From the NCBI GenBank assembly GCA_023382435.1, contig JAHDVS010000014.1, positions 6,905-54,250 on the forward strand: a stretch of 47,346 bases of DNA. The letters are read 5' to 3'. This DNA comes from Thermoleophilia bacterium (GTDB lineage Bacteria > Actinomycetota > Thermoleophilia > Gaiellales > Gaiellaceae). Made by a program: the position numbers and the translations under genes. Below, one piece after another: positions 13,914 to 21,959 of the stretch (positions within the stretch are counted from its first letter, which is position 1; each line of letters begins with the position of its first letter). Below the pieces are notes generated by a model. It was given only the letters and a program-made list of their open reading frames with translations, was not told the origin of the DNA and made no database searches.

Positions 13914-14576
13914 TCAGCCGGCCGGCTCGAGCGAGTCGCGCTCGATCGAGCCGATGTGCGCCGCCGTCGCCGCGGCCGCCGACTCCTCGTCGCCGGCGAC
14001 GATCCCGGCGAGGATCGCCTCGTGCTCCAGGATCGAGCGCGCCTCGCGCCCGGGGGAGCGCAGCGAGGTCGAGCCGATCAGCAGCAGGACGCTGCGCAGG
14101 TCGACGAGCAGCTTGCCCATGCGGCTGTTCCCCGACGCGTCGGCCAGCACGTCCGAGAACACGGTCAACGCGTCGAGGAGCCGCTGGGTGTCGCCCTCGG
14201 CTAGCGCACGCTTGCTCTCCTCGATCGAGGCCTCGAGCGTGGCCAGCACGTCCGGAGGCCGCCGGCGGGCGAGGTCGCGGGCGATCTGGCACTCGAGCAG
14301 GAGCCGCAGTTCGAGCACCTCGCGCACGTCGTCGGCGGACGGCTCGAGCACGCGCGCGCCGCGGTAGGGCTCGATCTCGACGAGCCCGTCGCGCTGCAGG
14401 CGGATCAGCGCCTCGCGCACCGGCGTCTTCGAGACCCCGAGCTCCTCGGCGATCCGAGCCTCCACGAGCTGGGCGCCGGGTCGCAGGGCGCCCGAGACGA
14501 TCTCGTCGCGCAGGCGCTCGTAGACGCGCCGCTCGAGCTGGGCGGGCAGGATCTTGTCACGTACGCGTTCGGCCAC
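13914..14576 (-). CDS. GntR-family (FCD domain) transcriptional regulator
   Basis: A 220-residue regulator. The winged helix spans about residues 15-75 (RPGAQLVEARIAEELGVSKT and PVREAL), followed by an all-helical FCD ligand domain. In many FCD proteins a metal is held by Asp and three His. Here the usual first His after the Phe in the xFHxxI segment is Ser (VFSDVLADASGN), while EHEAIL and AAHI remain, so metal binding may be altered. It converges on the HDAC gene and is divergent from the M20 gene. A copy of the shared operator lies just upstream, so autoregulation is likely. Confidence 0.9.
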   Translation of the reverse strand: MAERVRDKILPAQLERRVYERLRDEIVSGALRPGAQLVEARIAEELGVSKTPVREALIRLQRDGLVEIEPYRGARVLEPSADDVREVLELRLLLECQIARDLARRRPPDVLATLEASIEESKRALAEGDTQRLLDALTVFSDVLADASGNSRMGKLLVDLRSVLLLIGSTSLRSPGREARSILEHEAILAGIVAGDEESAAAATAAHIGSIERDSLEPAG

Positions 14577-14696: not shown

Positions 14697-15899
14697 ATGT
14701 CCGCCTCTCCCATCGATACGACGCTCGAAGCCGCTGCCGCCCTCGTCGACGCCGACGACGCGGTCGCGCTCACTTGCGAGCTCGTGCGGATTCCGAGCGT
14801 CCAGGGTGAGGAGGGGGAGATCGCGCGCTACCTGCACGGGCGGATGGGCCGGATGGGCTTCGACGACGTCGGCCTCCAGGACGCGCTGCCCGACCGCCCG
14901 AACGTCGTCGGCGTCGTCGACTCGGGTCGGCCCGGGCCGACGCTCGTCCTCACGGGCCACATCGACACGAAGCCGGTCTGCGTCGGCTGGAGCGGCGACC
15001 CGTACTCCGGGCGGCTCGACGACGGCAAGGTGCACGGGCACGCCGTCATGGACATGAAGGCCGGCGTCGCCACCCTGACCGAGGCGGCCGCCGCGCTCGC
15101 CCGCGACCGCTCGCTCTGGTGCGGCAAGGTCGTGCTGGCCGCGGTCGCCGACCACATGGGCCAGCAGCAGGGCGCGATCCGCTTTTTCGAGGAGCACCGG
15201 GCCGACTACTCGATCCTCGGCGAGCTGACCGATCTCGAGATCTACCTCGGTCACCGCGGCCGCCTCTACTGGGACGTCACCTCGGTCGGCCGCGCGGCCC
15301 ACACCTGCCACCGCCACCGCGCGATCAACGCGATCGCGAAGATGGTGCCGCTCGTCGAGGAGGTCGAGGCGCTCCGTCACGTGCCGGACCTGCCCGCCGA
15401 CGTCACCGAGCTGTTCGGGCCAGAGCTCTTCACCGCGGTTGGCCGGATCTACGGCGGTCTGCCGCCGGGGGGCCCGTCGATGATCCCCGACGAATGCGTG
15501 ATCCGCATCGACTCGCGCCCCCAGCCGGGCATCGAGGAGGGCGACGTGCGCGCGCTGATCGAGGGTGCGATCGCCCGCGCCCGCGCCCGCGATCCGGAGG
15601 CCCGCTACGAGCTCGTGCTCGCCGACCGCAAGAGCCCGCACCTGATCGCCCGCGAGCACCCGCTCACCGAGGCGCTCGCGCGGTCGATCAGGGCCGTCAC
15701 CGGGGCGGAGCCGGTCTACGGCGCCGGCTCCTGGCTTGCCGACACCGCCAGCGTCGGGCATCTCGCGCCGACCGTGATCTACGGGCCCGGTCGCGAGCCG
15801 GTCTACATGCCCGACGAGTGGCTCGACGTGGCGGACATCCACACGGCCGCCCGGGTCTACGCGGCGACCGCCGTTCAGCTGCTCGCCCCCGGTGGTTAG
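14697..15899 (+). CDS. M20-family peptidase/deacylase homologue with altered active site
   Basis: A 400-residue protein with the M20 fold (ArgE/DapE/YlmB group). The first ligands are present: GHID (His88, Asp90) and MDMKAG (Asp119). The usual DEE motif, which holds the catalytic and a metal-binding Glu, is replaced by DHM (152-154). The later Glu in LGELTD (Glu176) remains, but the C-terminal ligand His is Tyr370 (VYMPDEW). The lid domain (GHRGRLYWDVTSVGRAAHT) is intact, so this is not a decayed gene. YlmB, the formylaminopyrimidine deformylase of thiamin salvage, belongs to this family; whether this protein acts in that way is uncertain. Confidence 0.85.
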   Translation: MSASPIDTTLEAAAALVDADDAVALTCELVRIPSVQGEEGEIARYLHGRMGRMGFDDVGLQDALPDRPNVVGVVDSGRPGPTLVLTGHIDTKPVCVGWSGDPYSGRLDDGKVHGHAVMDMKAGVATLTEAAAALARDRSLWCGKVVLAAVADHMGQQQGAIRFFEEHRADYSILGELTDLEIYLGHRGRLYWDVTSVGRAAHTCHRHRAINAIAKMVPLVEEVEALRHVPDLPADVTELFGPELFTAVGRIYGGLPPGGPSMIPDECVIRIDSRPQPGIEEGDVRALIEGAIARARARDPEARYELVLADRKSPHLIAREHPLTEALARSIRAVTGAEPVYGAGSWLADTASVGHLAPTVIYGPGREPVYMPDEWLDVADIHTAARVYAATAVQLLAPGG

Positions 15900-15911: not shown

Positions 15912-16096
15912 TGACGTTCGACCGGAAACCGCTGGCCGGGATCGGTCGCGACGATTGGAGCTGTGCGTAGGGGCCGGACCTGTCCGGCCCGCAGCCCCGC
16001 TCGTTTCCCGGTGCTCGCATCGTCTCGGGCGGGACAGGTCCCGCCCCTACACCCCCTCGGCGTTTCCACTGCAACGTCATGAGCCGCTGCGCTAGC
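15912..16096. repeat. Palindromic interspersed repeat, copy 1
   Basis: The core is two 24-nt imperfect inverted arms (15967-15990 and 16027-16050; 22 of 24 positions pair) around a 36-nt middle. Outer inverted ends resembling TGACGTTnnanYGGAAAC lie at 15912-15929 and 16062-16080. The same core plus right end recurs at 40625-40756. No transposase is present, so it looks like a non-autonomous MITE or REP-like element. Similarity to copy 2 continues to about 16096, past the start codon of the next gene. Confidence 0.75.
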
Positions 16097-17056
16097 CGGC
16101 CCGAGTGCCTGGACGCGCTGCGCGTGCTCGCCACGACGTGCGCGGGTGTCCGTGCCGGCGAGCGCGCGCTGATCGTCACCGACTTCGCGGCGGACGTGGG
16201 GATCGCGGATGCGCTCGCAACGACGCTGCGGGCGTTTCAGGTCGACGTCGTCCACGTCGCGTTCGCTCCCGCCGCCCTCCCCGGCGGCGAGCCGCCCGCC
16301 CCGGTGAGCGCGGCGATGCTCGAGGCGGACGTCATCTTCGAGCTGACGTCCGTGTTCGTCGGCTCCTGTCAGGCCCGTCGAGACGCCTGCGCGCGCGGCG
16401 CCCGCTACCTCACCGTCCCGGGCCTGACGTGGACGACGCTGCGCCCCGGCGGCCCGTTCGGAGCCGACTTCCACGCGCTCGGGGAGCTGGCCCGGCGACT
16501 CGCGGCGCGCTTCGACGCCGCCTCCGAGTTCCATCTGACGAGCAAGGCCGGTACCGACCTGCGGGGAAGCTTCGAGGGGCGCAGGGGGAGGCCGCTCTGG
16601 GGCATCGCGGACGCGGCGGGCGGCTACGCCGCCCCGCCCGACATCGAGGTCGGCGCGAGCCCCGTCGAGGGGAGCGCCGAGGGGCGCGTCGTCGTCGACG
16701 GCTCGCTGCTCTTCCTCGGGCCCGACCAGCTCGCGAGCCCGGTCGAGCTCCGTTTCGCGGCGGGCCGGCTGACGGGTGTCGCCGGCGCCGAGGCCTGGCG
16801 CCTCGAGGACGCCCTCGACCGGGCCGGTGACGAGCGAATGACGAACCTCGCCGAGGTGTCGATCGGCCTCAACCCGCGCTCCCGCCCGGGCGGGAGCGCG
16901 CTCGAGCTCGAAGGAATCGTGGGGGGCGCCCACGTCGCGCTCGGCAACAACGTCTCCTACGGCGGCTCGGTCGACGCGCCCTCGCACTTGGACTGCGTGC
17001 TGCTCGAGGCGACGCTTGCCCTCGACGGGGAGCCGCTCGAGCCGCGCGGGAGCTGA
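16079..17056 (+). CDS. NicX/aminopeptidase M29-like metalloprotein
   Basis: A 325-residue member of the family that contains aminopeptidase T (M29) and NicX, the 2,5-dihydroxypyridine ring-cleaving dioxygenase. Candidate metal ligands are Glu259 (NLAEVSIGLNP), His285 (GGAHVALGNN), and His303/Asp305 (SHLD), matching the His-His-Asp pattern of NicX. It could be a peptidase or a ring-opening dioxygenase; the surrounding catabolic genes favour a small-molecule role. The ATG and first residues (MSRCASRPE) lie in the tail of the upstream repeat. No -10 box is seen, so it is probably read through from the M20 gene. Confidence 0.75.
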   Translation: MSRCASRPECLDALRVLATTCAGVRAGERALIVTDFAADVGIADALATTLRAFQVDVVHVAFAPAALPGGEPPAPVSAAMLEADVIFELTSVFVGSCQARRDACARGARYLTVPGLTWTTLRPGGPFGADFHALGELARRLAARFDAASEFHLTSKAGTDLRGSFEGRRGRPLWGIADAAGGYAAPPDIEVGASPVEGSAEGRVVVDGSLLFLGPDQLASPVELRFAAGRLTGVAGAEAWRLEDALDRAGDERMTNLAEVSIGLNPRSRPGGSALELEGIVGGAHVALGNNVSYGGSVDAPSHLDCVLLEATLALDGEPLEPRGS

Positions 17057-17094
17057 CGGCTCAACATCCACGACCGACCCGAGAGGTGACGACG

Positions 17095-18579
17095 ATGGCG
17101 ACACAGGTGCTCGACGAGGTCTCGGCCTTCCTGGCACGGGAGCACGGCCTCCTGATCGGCGGCGAGGAGGTCGCGCCGCGAAGCGGGACGCGCTTCGACG
17201 TCGTCAATCCGGCGACCGGCGAGGCGATCGCGACCGCCCCGTCGGCCGGGCCGGACGACGTCGACGATGCCGTCCGGGCCGCGCGTGAGGCGCTGCCCGC
17301 CTGGCGCTCGCTCGCGCCGGCTGCCCGAGCCGAGCTGCTGTGGAATCTGGGCACGCGGCTCGCTGAGCTCGCGGACGAGCTCGCCCAGCTCGAGACGCTC
17401 GACAACGGCAAGCCGACCGGCGAGGCGCTCGCGGTCGACGTGCCGCTCTGCTCGGCGCTGTTTCGCTACTACGCGGGCTGGGCGACGAAGATCGAGGGCG
17501 CGGTCGCGACGCCCTCCTACGGCAACTTCCACGTCTACACGCGCCGCGAGCCCGTCGGTGTCGTCGGCGCGATCATCCCCTGGAACTTCCCGCTACTCAT
17601 GTGCGGCTACAAGCTCGGGCCGTCGCTCGCCGCCGGCTGCACCGTCGTCTTGAAGCCTGCCGAGCAGACGCCGCTCGGCGCGCTGCGCCTGGCCGAGCTG
17701 ATCTCCGAGGTCGGCTTCCCGCCCGGCGTCGTCAACATCGTCACCGGCTTCGGCGAGACCGCCGGGGCGCCGCTCGCGGCCCACCCCGGCGTCGACAAGG
17801 TCACGTTCACGGGCGAGCACACGACGGGCCAGAAGATCGTCGAGGCCTCGAAGGGCAATCTCAAGCGGATCTCGCTCGAGCTCGGCGGCAAGTCCCCGAA
17901 CATCGTCTTCGCGGACGCCGACCTCGACGCCGCGCTGGCCGGAGCGCACGGCGCCGTCTTCTTCAACCAGGGCCAGTGCTGCATCGCCGGCGCGCGCATC
18001 TACGCGCACGAGCGGATCCGCGACGAGTTCGTCGAGCGCCTCGCCGAGCGCGCGCGGGGAATCCGGCTCGGCAACGGGCTCGACCCCACGACCGACATGG
18101 GCCCGCTCGTCAGCGAGCAGCAGCTCGAGCGCGTCGCCGGCTACATCGCGTCCGGCCGGGACGAGGGTGCCCGCGTCGTCTACGGCGGCGAACGCGTGGG
18201 CGGCGAGGGCCTCGACGGAGGCTACTTCGTGCGCCCGACCGTCCTCACCGACGTCGATCCAAAGATGCGCGTGATGCGCGAGGAGATCTTCGGCCCGGTC
18301 GCGATGGTCGCGTCGTTCGCCGACGAGGACGAGGTGATCGCCGCCGCCAACGACACGCCGTTCGGGCTGGCCGCCGGCATCTGGACGCGCGATGTCAAGC
18401 GGGCCCACCGGGTCGCGGCTGCGCTCGAGGCCGGGACGGTCTGGGTCAACACGTACGGGATGTTCGACGCGGCCATCCCCTACGGGGGCTTCAAGCTGTC
18501 CGGCTACGGCAAGGAGCTCGGCCGGGAGGCGCTCGACCTCTACCTGCAGACGAAGACGGTCTGGGTCGATCTCGCGTGA
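17095..18579 (+). CDS. Aldehyde dehydrogenase (ALDH-1)
   Basis: A 494-residue NAD(P)-dependent ALDH. It has the cofactor segment IIPWNFPLLM near residue 160, catalytic Glu in ELGGKSPN near 262, and the nucleophile in NQGQCCIAG (Cys295; Cys296 adjacent). The fold, length and C-terminal EEIFGPVA are usual for betaine- or retinal-type ALDHs. The ATG at 17095 has GAGAGG 8 nt upstream. Lying before TenA-2 with a GTGA overlap and near an alcohol dehydrogenase, it probably oxidises the aldehyde formed from a hydroxymethyl compound, perhaps 5-formylpyrimidine to the carboxylate (inference). Confidence 0.92.
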   Translation: MATQVLDEVSAFLAREHGLLIGGEEVAPRSGTRFDVVNPATGEAIATAPSAGPDDVDDAVRAAREALPAWRSLAPAARAELLWNLGTRLAELADELAQLETLDNGKPTGEALAVDVPLCSALFRYYAGWATKIEGAVATPSYGNFHVYTRREPVGVVGAIIPWNFPLLMCGYKLGPSLAAGCTVVLKPAEQTPLGALRLAELISEVGFPPGVVNIVTGFGETAGAPLAAHPGVDKVTFTGEHTTGQKIVEASKGNLKRISLELGGKSPNIVFADADLDAALAGAHGAVFFNQGQCCIAGARIYAHERIRDEFVERLAERARGIRLGNGLDPTTDMGPLVSEQQLERVAGYIASGRDEGARVVYGGERVGGEGLDGGYFVRPTVLTDVDPKMRVMREEIFGPVAMVASFADEDEVIAAANDTPFGLAAGIWTRDVKRAHRVAAALEAGTVWVNTYGMFDAAIPYGGFKLSGYGKELGREALDLYLQTKTVWVDLA

Positions 18580-19262
18580 TCTCGTTCTGCGACTCGCTCC
18601 GGGACGGCTGCGGGGAGCTCTGGCGGGGTCTCCACCGCCACCCGTTCCTGCGCGAGCTCGCGGACGGTTCGCTCGAGCCGGAGCGGTTTCGCTTCTTCCT
18701 CGAGCAGGACATCTTCTTCCTGCCCGAGCTCGCCCGCGCGGTCGCGCTCGGAGTGGCGCGCTCGCGCGACGACGCGGAGCTCGATCATTTCGCCGACGAG
18801 CTGGCGGCGGTCAGCGGTCGCGAGCTCGAGTCCAACCGGGAGCTGCTGGCCCGGGTCGTCGCGCTCGGTGCCGCGGACCGCGGCGGCTCGCTTGCGCCCG
18901 CACCGGCGACCGTCGCGTACGCCGGCTATCTCGTCTCGACCGCGGCGCGCGGCGGGACGCTCGAGATCATGACCGTGCTCCTGCCCTGCACGTGGAGCTA
19001 CGCGGAGATCGCGGTCGGCCTGGCGAGCGAGATCTCAGATCATCCGGTGTATGCGAGCTGGGTCGAGTTCTTCGCGAGCGACGAGTACGTGGGGGTGATC
19101 GCGGGCCGGCGGGCGACGCTCGACCGGCTCGCGTCCGGGCTCGGCGCCGGCGAGCGGCGGCGTCTCCAGGACGTCTTTACGATGAGCACACGGCTCGAGC
19201 ACGCTTTCTGGGAGATGGCGTACCGCTTCGAGCAGTGGCCCGATCTGAGGGAGGTGGCATGA
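18576..19262 (+). CDS. TenA-family protein (TenA-2), divergent
   Basis: A 228-residue TenA homologue. The core catalytic residues are present: Asp45 in EQDIFF, Cys138 in LPCTWSY, Glu208 in RLEHAFW. Two tyrosines that line the pyrimidine pocket in B. subtilis TenA are Phe here: Phe48 (Tyr47) and the one in VEFFASDEY (Tyr163). This points to a thiamin-related but shifted substrate. The GTG at 18576 overlaps the ALDH stop (GTGA), and its own stop overlaps the next ATG, so it is translated as part of the M20-to-TenA-3 operon. Confidence 0.88.
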   Translation: MISFCDSLRDGCGELWRGLHRHPFLRELADGSLEPERFRFFLEQDIFFLPELARAVALGVARSRDDAELDHFADELAAVSGRELESNRELLARVVALGAADRGGSLAPAPATVAYAGYLVSTAARGGTLEIMTVLLPCTWSYAEIAVGLASEISDHPVYASWVEFFASDEYVGVIAGRRATLDRLASGLGAGERRRLQDVFTMSTRLEHAFWEMAYRFEQWPDLREVA

Positions 19263-20278
19263 AGGCAGCCGTGCTGGTGGAAGGCGGTCAGGTGCGCGTG
19301 GAGGACGTGGCCGACCCCGTCGCCGACGGATGGGCGCTCGTCCAGGCGAAGGCCGCGGGTGTCTGCGGCACCGAGCTCCACTTCATGGAGGGGATGATCC
19401 CGCCCCCGTCCGACCGTTTCATCCTCGGCCACGAGAGCGCCGGGGTCGTGCTCGAGACCCCGGCCGGCTCCGCGGTCGCGCCGGGCGACCGGGTCGCCGT
19501 CTACAACATGGTCGGCTGCGGCTCGTGCCGCCCCTGCCTGAGCCAGCGCGAGTCGCTCTGCGTCGAGCCCGTGGGCCAGCTCGGCTTCTCGCTCCCCGGC
19601 GGCTTCGCGGACGTGGTGCGCGTGCCCGCGCGCAATCTCGTCCCGCTCCCCGAGGACGTCTCCTTCGAGGCGGGAGCCCTGCTTGCGTGCAGCGGCATGT
19701 CGGCCGTCCATGCGTCCAGGCTCGCCGGGATCGCGCTCGGCGACACCGTCGTCGTCGACGGGGTCGGCGGGGTGGGGCTGATGGCAGTGCAGGTTGCGTT
19801 CGCCGCCGGCGCGCGGGTGATCGCCGTCGCGGATACGGAGGAGCGGGCGCGGCTGGCAGCCGGCGCGGGCGCCGCGGAGACGATCGTGCTTCCGGGTGGC
19901 GAGGGCTACGACGGCCTCCCCGACCGCGTGCGGGAGCTGACCGGGGGCGCGGGGGCCGACCACTACGTCGAGCTGGTCGGCACCGGGCAGACGCTGCTTG
20001 CGGGCATCCGGTCGCTCGGGCGAGGCGGCAAGCTCGTGATCATCGGCTACACGGGCGATCACCTGGACGTGCACCCGATCGAGCTGATCCTCTCGGAGAT
20101 CCAGGTGATCACCTCGGTGGCGGCATCGAGGCGCGACCTCGAGACGGCGATCCAGCTTGCCGCTGCCGGGAGGCTGAGCGCCACGGTCGACACCCGCTAC
20201 CCGCTCGCCGAGATCGGGACCGCGCTCGAGCGCCTGAAGGCGCGGCAGGTGCGAGGCCGCAACGTGATCGTCTGGTGA
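19259..20278 (+). CDS. Zinc-dependent MDR alcohol dehydrogenase
   Basis: A 339-residue medium-chain dehydrogenase. The catalytic zinc site is seen in AGVCGTELHF (Cys near 38) and GHESAGVV (His-Glu near 62), the structural zinc Cys cluster in GCGSCRPCLSQRESLC near 88-102, and the nucleotide-binding loop GVGGVGLMAV near 173. It probably oxidises a primary or secondary alcohol with NAD(P). The order ALDH-TenA-ADH suggests stepwise alcohol-to-acid oxidation of one substrate. The ATG overlaps the TenA-2 stop (ATGA), and the stop overlaps the LLM gene start (TGATG). Confidence 0.9.
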   Translation: MKAAVLVEGGQVRVEDVADPVADGWALVQAKAAGVCGTELHFMEGMIPPPSDRFILGHESAGVVLETPAGSAVAPGDRVAVYNMVGCGSCRPCLSQRESLCVEPVGQLGFSLPGGFADVVRVPARNLVPLPEDVSFEAGALLACSGMSAVHASRLAGIALGDTVVVDGVGGVGLMAVQVAFAAGARVIAVADTEERARLAAGAGAAETIVLPGGEGYDGLPDRVRELTGGAGADHYVELVGTGQTLLAGIRSLGRGGKLVIIGYTGDHLDVHPIELILSEIQVITSVAASRRDLETAIQLAAAGRLSATVDTRYPLAEIGTALERLKARQVRGRNVIVW

Positions 20279-21264
20279 TGCGCTACGGCGTCACCCTCCA
20301 GGGTGCCTACGAGCCGGCCGAGTGGGTCGAGCTCGTCCGCTGGGTCGAGCAGCTCGGTTTCGACAACCTCTGGATCACCGACTCCTCGCTCCACGCCGGC
20401 GACTGCTACGTCTACGCGACCCTGGCGCTCCAGGCGACGTCCAGGATCACGGTCGGGACGGCCGTCACGAACCCGCTCACGCGCCACCCGGCGATCACCG
20501 CGAACGCGTTTCGCTCGCTCGTCCAGCTCGCGCCCGGCCGGGTCGCGTGCGGCCTGGGCGTCGGCGACCGGCCCCTGTACGAGCTCGGGCTGCCGATGGC
20601 GAAGGTGTCGACGCTCAGGGACACGATCGAGGTGGCGCGGCGGCTGTGGCGCGGCGAGACGATCGACGGGGAGGTCGGGCGCTGGCGTCTCGTCGGGGCG
20701 CACCTGCGCTCGCCGGTGGAGGAGCCGCCGGTCTACATCTCCGCGAGCCGCCCGCGGGCGCTCGAGCTCACCGGTGAGATCGCGGACGGGCTGATCCTGC
20801 TTGCCGGCCTGTTCCCGGAGGGGCTCGCGTTCGCGCGGGAGCACGTCGCGCGCGGCCGCGCGGCGGGTGGGCGGCCGGACTTCGACGAGACGTTGTTTCT
20901 CTACGGGGCGATCTCGGATGACGAGGAGGCCGCACTCGACTCCGCCCGTACGATCGCCGCCTGGTTTCCGAAGACGGCGCCCGACTACGCCCGCCTGGCC
21001 GGGATGAGCGACGAGCTGATCGAGTCGGTCAACGCGGCCTACACGGGCGGCGAGTTCCAGCACGCCAGATCGGCTGCGCGGTTGATCCCGGACGAGCTCG
21101 TCCGCAAGATCGCGTTCTGCGGCACGCCGGCGCAGGCGCTCGAGAAGCTCGACTGGCTGCGCGGGGCGGGTGTCGGCGGCATGAGCGTGTTCCCGCTCGG
21201 GGCCGACAAGCGCGAGACGATCGCCCGCTTCGCGGCGCTCTGCGTCGGGTCGGGGTCGGCATGA
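20278..21264 (+). CDS. LLM-class flavin/F420-dependent oxidoreductase
   Basis: A 328-residue luciferase-like TIM-barrel protein: LGFDNLWITDSS near 27, TSRITVGTAVTNPLTRHP near 57, PGRVACGLGVGD near 83, and VYISASRPRALEL near 150. It resembles F420-dependent methylene-H4MPT reductase-like enzymes of actinobacteria, but FMN-dependent monooxygenation (as in RutA) is also possible. In a catabolic operon, a monooxygenase acting on a pyrimidine or thiazole ring is plausible but unproven. It is tightly coupled at both ends (TGATG and ATGA overlaps). Confidence 0.87.
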   Translation: MRYGVTLQGAYEPAEWVELVRWVEQLGFDNLWITDSSLHAGDCYVYATLALQATSRITVGTAVTNPLTRHPAITANAFRSLVQLAPGRVACGLGVGDRPLYELGLPMAKVSTLRDTIEVARRLWRGETIDGEVGRWRLVGAHLRSPVEEPPVYISASRPRALELTGEIADGLILLAGLFPEGLAFAREHVARGRAAGGRPDFDETLFLYGAISDDEEAALDSARTIAAWFPKTAPDYARLAGMSDELIESVNAAYTGGEFQHARSAARLIPDELVRKIAFCGTPAQALEKLDWLRGAGVGGMSVFPLGADKRETIARFAALCVGSGSA

Positions 21265-21959
21265 GCGTCAGCGAGCGTCTGCGGGAGGAATGCGCGCCCG
21301 TCTGGGCGGGTCTGCACGCGCACCCGTTCATCCGCGAGCTGGCCGCGGGAACGCTGCCGCCCGGGAAGTTCCGCTTCTACGTCGAGCAGAACCTGATGTA
21401 CCTGCCCGAGTACGCGCGGGCGATGGCGATCGGGGCCTCGAAGGCGCCCGACGCGGCGACGATGGCCGCGTTCACGGCCGACCTCGTCAACATCGTCGAG
21501 AGCGAGCTGCCCGAGAACCGGGAGCTCCTGCGCCGGGTGATCGAGCTCGGCGCGGCCGACGCGGGCGGGGCCGAGGCGATGGCGCCCGCGAACGTCGCCT
21601 ACACCGGCTTCCTCGTCGCGACCGCGACGCGGGGGAGCGTGCTCGAGATCATGGCGGCGATCCTGCCCTGCACGTGGAGCTACGGCGACATCGCCGCGGC
21701 GCTCGTCGCGGAGGGGCTCGTTCACGACCACCCCGTGTACGCGGAGTGGATCCGCTTCTTCGGCGAGCCGTCCTACGACGCGATCGTCGCGAAGGTACGC
21801 GGCGACTTCGAGACGCTGGCTGCGGGCGCCCCGGAGGCCGAGCTCGCCCGCCTGTCGGACCTGTTCACGATGAGCGTCCGCCTCGAGCGGGGCTTCTGGG
21901 ACATGGCCTACAACCTCGAGACCTGGCCCGATGTGCGGGCCCGCCATCCGCTCCCGTAG
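21261..21959 (+). CDS. TenA-family protein (TenA-3) with Asp44 to Asn
   Basis: A 232-residue TenA homologue that can be numbered like B. subtilis TenA near its N-terminus. The key pyrimidine-binding Asp44 is Asn44 (VEQNLMY), while Tyr47 is kept. The nucleophile Cys137 (LPCTWSY) and Glu209 (RLERGFW) are present. The Tyr163 position is Phe (IRFFGEP). In TenA, Asp44 contacts the 4-amino side of the pyrimidine, so Asn could favour a 4-oxo or otherwise altered ring. It is closest to TenA-2 and is the last gene of the operon. Confidence 0.87.
   Translation: MSVSERLREECAPVWAGLHAHPFIRELAAGTLPPGKFRFYVEQNLMYLPEYARAMAIGASKAPDAATMAAFTADLVNIVESELPENRELLRRVIELGAADAGGAEAMAPANVAYTGFLVATATRGSVLEIMAAILPCTWSYGDIAAALVAEGLVHDHPVYAEWIRFFGEPSYDAIVAKVRGDFETLAAGAPEAELARLSDLFTMSVRLERGFWDMAYNLETWPDVRARHPLP

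What the first reader, a model, noticed from the sequence alone, without database searches (positions are those of the whole stretch)
14697..15899. M20-family protein lacking the catalytic Glu pair and the C-terminal metal His
The DEE motif of M20 deacylases is DHM at 152-154, and the usual last metal ligand His is Tyr370, while His88, Asp90, Asp119, Glu176 and the whole fold including the lid are kept. The gene is full-length in a coupled operon, so it is not a decaying pseudogene. It may be a binding protein, a mono-metal enzyme with His153 as a new ligand, or a different hydrolase.
Basis: seen in the sequence. Interest (0 to 1): 0.6.

Follow-up and report, generated by a model that had tools for sequence, protein, structure and literature searches.

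The report
M20 hydrolase with rebuilt one-metal site
This gene encodes a member of a common family of two-metal amide-cutting enzymes whose second metal site and catalytic glutamate have been swapped for His, Met and Tyr; the swap is conserved in two distant bacterial groups, so it is probably a working enzyme with altered chemistry rather than an error or a dead gene.

Summary
The 400-aa M20 protein at 14697-15899 keeps His88, Asp90, Asp119, Glu176 and His202 of M20 deacylases. It has His153 for the catalytic-base Glu, Met154 for the second-metal Glu and Tyr370 for the second-metal His. In one alignment, all 20 canonical M20 rows have E/E/H at these positions and all five non-identical DHM rows have H/M/Y. 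Orthologues occur in Solirubrobacterales MAGs (63-65%) and marine Rhodospirillales MAGs (about 50%), all with the same residues; close pairs show purifying selection. This rules out sequencing error and decay. The family is a clade even with motif columns removed (100/100). The model is a confident M20 fold (pLDDT 94; Z about 41 to DapE and to 5-nitroanthranilate aminohydrolase). Best reading, inferred: an active one-metal M20 hydrolase using site 1 (H88/D119/E176), with His153 as base. It lies in catabolic clusters with an LLM oxidoreductase and a GntR regulator in all three neighbourhood types read, and an M29/NicX-like protein in two. 5-Nitroanthranilate aminohydrolase is a precedent for second-site loss, but is a separate clade that keeps the Glu base. 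Substrate unknown. New variant of a known kind.

The parts
14697..15899 (+). M20-fold protein with DHM/Tyr370 signature (400 aa)
   Evidence: Pfam PF01546 and PF07687; 33-row alignment and model pLDDT 94.3
14958..14966 (+). His88-x-Asp90: site-1 metal His and its Asp partner
   Evidence: invariant in all M20 rows
15051..15053 (+). Asp119: canonical bridging metal ligand, kept
   Evidence: Asn in the 5-nitroanthranilate aminohydrolase clade
15150..15158 (+). Asp152-His153-Met154 in place of Asp-Glu-Glu
15222..15224 (+). Glu176: site-1 metal ligand, kept
   Evidence: invariant
15300..15302 (+). His202: lid-domain His, kept
   Evidence: 5/5 DHM rows, 17/20 canonical rows
15804..15806 (+). Tyr370 in place of the site-2 metal His
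13914..14576 (-). Divergent GntR/FCD regulator
   Evidence: Pfam; relatives in the L033, L034 and L037 loci
16079..17056 (+). M29/NicX-superfamily protein, partner gene
   Evidence: 7cn3 E 2e-8; orthologue 68-72% beside the M20 in the Solirubrobacterales loci
17086..18579 (+). Aldehyde dehydrogenase
18576..19262 (+). TenA-like protein 1
   Evidence: TIGR04306 134.3 bits vs cut-off 130
19259..20278 (+). Zn-type alcohol dehydrogenase
20278..21264 (+). LLM flavin/F420 oxidoreductase, partner gene
   Evidence: PF00296 E 6e-52; relative in all three neighbourhood types
21261..21959 (+). TenA-like protein 2
   Evidence: TIGR04306 156.1 bits

Best explanation
It is a catalytically active, probably single-metal M20-fold hydrolase. 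Shown: the site-1 ligands (His88, Asp119, Glu176) and the lid His202 are kept; both site-2 ligands (Glu to Met154, His to Tyr370) and the base Glu (to His153) are replaced together, and the replacements are fixed in the family. Inferred: one divalent metal in site 1 polarises water and the substrate carbonyl (or ring carbon); His153, next to the kept Asp152, takes the role of the Glu base; Tyr370 and Met154 line the emptied site-2 pocket and reshape it for a substrate, probably an acyl, cyclic-amide or amino group of an N-heterocycle breakdown intermediate. It works in a catabolic cluster with an LLM oxidoreductase under a GntR regulator.
For: Concerted, invariant replacement of exactly the second-metal and base residues while site 1 stays complete. 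Same signature at 48-50% identity in a different phylum. dN/dS 0.15-0.22 between close orthologues. Motif segments 71/88 invariant vs 71/291 elsewhere (segments chosen by hand). Confident M20 model. Conserved enzyme-rich neighbourhood with LLM and GntR in all three types read. Precedent: 5-nitroanthranilate aminohydrolase also lacks both site-2 ligands and is an active metal-dependent enzyme (alignments; [quoted passage not shown]
Against: No metal, activity or substrate data. No coordinates were available, so distances of His153 and Tyr370 to the metal site were not measured. Roles of the M20 residues are taken from general knowledge of DapE/ArgE/CPG2. Few lineages are known (window, one Solirubrobacterales genus, one marine alphaproteobacterial type).
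Confidence: 0.6

Rival explanations
1. Non-catalytic (pseudoenzyme) binding or regulatory protein that keeps the M20 fold and perhaps a structural metal.
For: The catalytic base and two metal ligands are missing.
Against: Site 1, HxD and the lid His are strictly conserved across phyla, and the loci encode enzymes of a catabolic route. A pure binder would not need all of these.
Confidence: 0.15
2. The protein catalyses a different reaction on the M20 fold, such as metal-dependent hydrolytic removal of an amino group from an aromatic N-ring or ring opening, independently evolved but similar in kind to 5-nitroanthranilate aminohydrolase.
For: 5NAA-A is among the closest structural matches, with the lowest rmsd of the top ten rows (2.2 A over 365 residues), and shares loss of the site-2 ligands. 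The clusters contain TenA (window) or TRZ/ATZ-type amidohydrolase and hydantoinase/carbamoylase genes (Rhodospirillales), suggesting N-heterocycles.
Against: Separate clade from 5NAA-A (5NAA-A plus its relatives 99/94); 5NAA-A keeps the base Glu and has Asn at 119, this family does the opposite. Substrate unknown.
Confidence: 0.15
3. It is still a two-metal enzyme in which His153, Tyr370 or other family-specific residues (His115, Cys95, Cys204) supply site-2 ligands.
For: His115, Cys95 and Cys204 are invariant in the family and rare or absent in the canonical rows.
Against: His153 is at the base position, not the ligand position; Met and Tyr are poor Zn ligands (general knowledge); no coordinates to test geometry.
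Confidence: 0.08

Closest known systems
ArgE/DapE-type M20 deacylases (7rsf ArgE; 7uoi, 5vo3, 4o23 DapE)
   Same: Fold, lid domain, site-1 ligands His/Asp/Glu, HxD motif, lid His
   Different: His153 for base Glu, Met154 and Tyr370 for site-2 ligands; inserted PPGG loop near 256-259; score below every curated NCBIfam cut-off shown
5-nitroanthranilate aminohydrolase (5k8m-5k8p), an M20-fold SNAr aminohydrolase
   Same: Fold (Z 40.8, rmsd 2.2 A over 365 residues); both site-2 ligands lost
   Different: 5NAA-A keeps the base Glu (GEID), has Ile not Met, Asn at the bridging Asp and no Tyr370; separate clade
'LHE' M20 clade (L025, L026, L028; same family of bacteria as the window)
   Same: Base Glu replaced by His at the same column
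   Different: Keeps the second Glu and the C-terminal His; a common origin with the DHM clade is unsupported once motif columns are removed (67/23)
YlmB formylaminopyrimidine deformylase (recalled, not tested)
   Different: Not compared here; no TenA or NMT1 match in the orthologous loci

Membership tests
Peptidase family M20 (PF01546) | Profile match over the catalytic domain plus M20_dimer lid | tested here: met
   75.7 bits vs cut-off 24.6; M20_dimer 40.8 vs 21; fold Z about 41
Peptidase family M20 (PF01546) | Site-1 metal ligands His, Asp, Glu | tested here: met
   H88, D119, E176
Canonical two-metal M20 hydrolases (a subset of the fold family) | Catalytic Glu and second-metal Glu and His | tested here: not met
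   H153, M154, Y370 in 5/5 DHM rows vs E, E, H in 20/20 canonical rows
ArgE/DapE family deacylase (TIGR01910) | Score above curated cut-off | tested here: not met
   147.6 vs 217.6 bits; orthologues 151.6 and 156.2
5-nitroanthranilate aminohydrolase clade | Groups with 5k8m in a tree | tested here: not met
   5NAA-A plus L017/L021/L024/L027/L030 is a separate clade, 99/94
5-nitroanthranilate aminohydrolase clade | Loss of site-2 Glu and His with base Glu kept | tested here: not met
   Site-2 residues lost, but base is His
NicX 2,5-dihydroxypyridine dioxygenase (partner gene 16079-17056) | Fe ligands H265, S302, H318, D320 (PMC7910607) | tested here: not met
   H318/D320 kept; the aligned residues for H265 and S302 are Glu and Ala
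YlmB formylaminopyrimidine deformylase | Orthology or activity on formylaminopyrimidine | not tested
   No YlmB sequence was compared
Mononuclear metallohydrolase | One metal per subunit | not testable with these tools
   Needs ICP-MS or a crystal structure

The most novel reading that the evidence does not exclude
A second, independently evolved one-metal M20 enzyme type that pairs a His base with a dismantled second metal site and carries out non-amide chemistry (hydrolytic deamination or ring opening) on an N-heterocycle, coupled to an LLM oxidoreductase in a catabolic route not yet described.
Probability: 0.25. Interest if true: 0.65.

Novelty: new variant of a known kind. Interest (0 to 1): 0.45.

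Why it matters
The M20 family is a textbook two-metal hydrolase family with a Glu base. A conserved lineage in which the base and the whole second site were exchanged together tests how metalloenzymes move to one metal and new chemistry. Automatic annotation would call it ArgE/DapE, which is probably wrong. The clusters point to a breakdown route in environmental bacteria that I could not match to a described one.

Tried and rejected
Sequencing error or pseudogene: rejected, same residues in independent genomes of two phyla and dN/dS 0.15-0.22. A conventional Glu pair elsewhere: none seen; the motif aligns without gaps to the next Gly-Ala of ArgE. L029 first seemed to carry a DH motif, but the better alignment shows a normal EE. 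NicX-type ring dioxygenase for the partner gene: sequence relative, but two of four Fe ligands are not kept. First scan of genome contigs with the single sequence found nothing; the two-sequence profile found five orthologous loci. Viral contigs gave none; plasmids only a 30% M20. Literature searches for one-metal M20 enzymes gave nothing specific. Model coordinates are not exposed, so distances could not be measured. One DHM+LHE tree signal (SH-aLRT 91) lost support when the motif columns were removed (67/23).

Full report
OBSERVATION. The frame 14697-15899 (+) encodes an uninterrupted 400-aa protein. Pfam finds Peptidase_M20 (E 6e-21) and M20_dimer (E 2e-10). Solved relatives are DapE and ArgE. 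In an L-INS-i alignment with ArgE 7rsf, DapE 4o23 and 5-nitroanthranilate aminohydrolase 5k8m, Asp152-His153-Met154 falls on Asp-Glu-Glu and Tyr370 on the C-terminal His. In one search, 20 of 20 canonical rows have E, E, H; five of five DHM rows have H, M, Y; His88, Asp90, Asp119 and Glu176 are invariant in both sets. By established knowledge of H. influenzae DapE (recalled, not tested here: H67, D100, E163 for site 1; D100, E135, H349 for site 2; E134 base), site 1 is complete, site 2 has lost both private ligands, and the base is His. One HMMER alignment (7uoi) shifts the register by one residue; spacing and the other alignments do not support that shift.

REALITY. A two-sequence profile recovered orthologous loci in three Actinomycetota/Solirubrobacterales MAGs (63-65%) and in two Alphaproteobacteria/Rhodospirillales MAGs with near-identical loci (about 50%). 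All keep D152-H153-M154-G155, E176, H202 and Y370. Nei-Gojobori dN/dS between close orthologues is 0.15-0.22; the distant pairs give 0.48-0.55 and are poorly estimated by this method at high GC, so I do not lean on them. The gene is rare: own genome plus one other of 299 genomes of the class, only the own genome of 396 of the phylum, three of 50 in the Solirubrobacterales family, one of 103 in the window's family, two of 398 in a further class sample. The partner M29/NicX-like gene at high identity occurs in exactly the same two genomes of 299.

PLACE IN THE FAMILY. The DHM proteins are one clade with 100/100 support even with the motif columns removed. 5NAA-A and its relatives form another clade (99/94) that lost site 2 differently (Glu to Ile, no His) and kept the base Glu. 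A third clade (L025, L026, L028) has His at the base but keeps site 2; its kinship to DHM is unresolved (67/23). So the second site was given up in at least two separate clades; in DHM the base changed too.

STRUCTURE. AlphaFold2 from a 33-row alignment gives mean pLDDT 94.3, pTM 0.91. Foldseek and VIA-align put DapE, ArgE and 5NAA-A on top (Z 38-42); 5k8m has the lowest rmsd of the top ten rows, 2.2 A over 365 residues.

SURROUNDINGS. Window: NMT1-type substrate-binding protein with a permease and ATPase (minus strand; the last two named from reading the translations), HDAC-like amidohydrolase, divergent GntR, M20(DHM), M29/NicX-like, ALDH, TenA, ADH, LLM, TenA. Solirubrobacterales: M20(DHM), M29/NicX-like, a second M20, LLM, then methylmalonyl-CoA mutase parts, CoA-transferase and GntR. 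Rhodospirillales: branched-chain-type transporter, GntR, alpha/beta hydrolase and LLM divergent from M20(DHM), amidase, TRZ/ATZ-type amidohydrolase, hydantoinase/carbamoylase. LLM and GntR are common to all three, although the alphaproteobacterial pair is distant (38% and 26%), so orthology there is not shown. The M29/NicX-like protein lacks two of the four NicX iron ligands, so ring dioxygenation cannot be assumed. TenA and the NMT1 transporter gave no match in the orthologous loci, so an aminopyrimidine substrate is a local hint at best.

MECHANISM. Shown: the residue changes, their fixation, the fold, selection and context. Inferred: one metal in site 1, His153 as base, a reshaped site-2 pocket with Met154 and Tyr370, action on an amide or amino group of an N-heterocycle intermediate. 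Rivals are a binding protein, a non-amide reaction of the 5NAA-A kind, or a two-metal site with new ligands.

VERDICT. Real, conserved and functional; a new variant of a known kind, with 5NAA-A as a partial precedent that lowers the surprise.

Noticed in passing
L025 (G018), L026 (G019), L028 (G032); neighbourhoods L049-L051: Another M20 clade with His in place of the base Glu (motif LHE) but intact site-2 ligands, beside what look like CocE/S15-type hydrolases and hydantoinase A/B genes (named from reading the translations).
   Followed up: partly
L017, L021, L024, L027, L030: 5-nitroanthranilate-aminohydrolase-like M20 proteins (GEIEKT, ISNMK, no C-terminal His) recur in the window's own bacterial family; L017 matches 5k8m at E 2e-49.
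   Followed up: partly
21261-21959: The second TenA-like protein has Asn (EQNLMY) where the first has Asp (EQDIFF), at what I recall as the TenA active-site Asp44; the Cys and Glu motifs look kept in both.
   Followed up: no
16079-17056: M29/NicX-superfamily protein with no Pfam match at E 0.001; Glu and Ala at two NicX iron-ligand positions, and an E, E, H, H, D set resembling M29 peptidases (recalled ligand set).
   Followed up: partly
L033:11153-12226: A second M20 protein (motif GEEG) between the M29/NicX-like and LLM genes of the Solirubrobacterales locus, absent from the window cluster.
   Followed up: no
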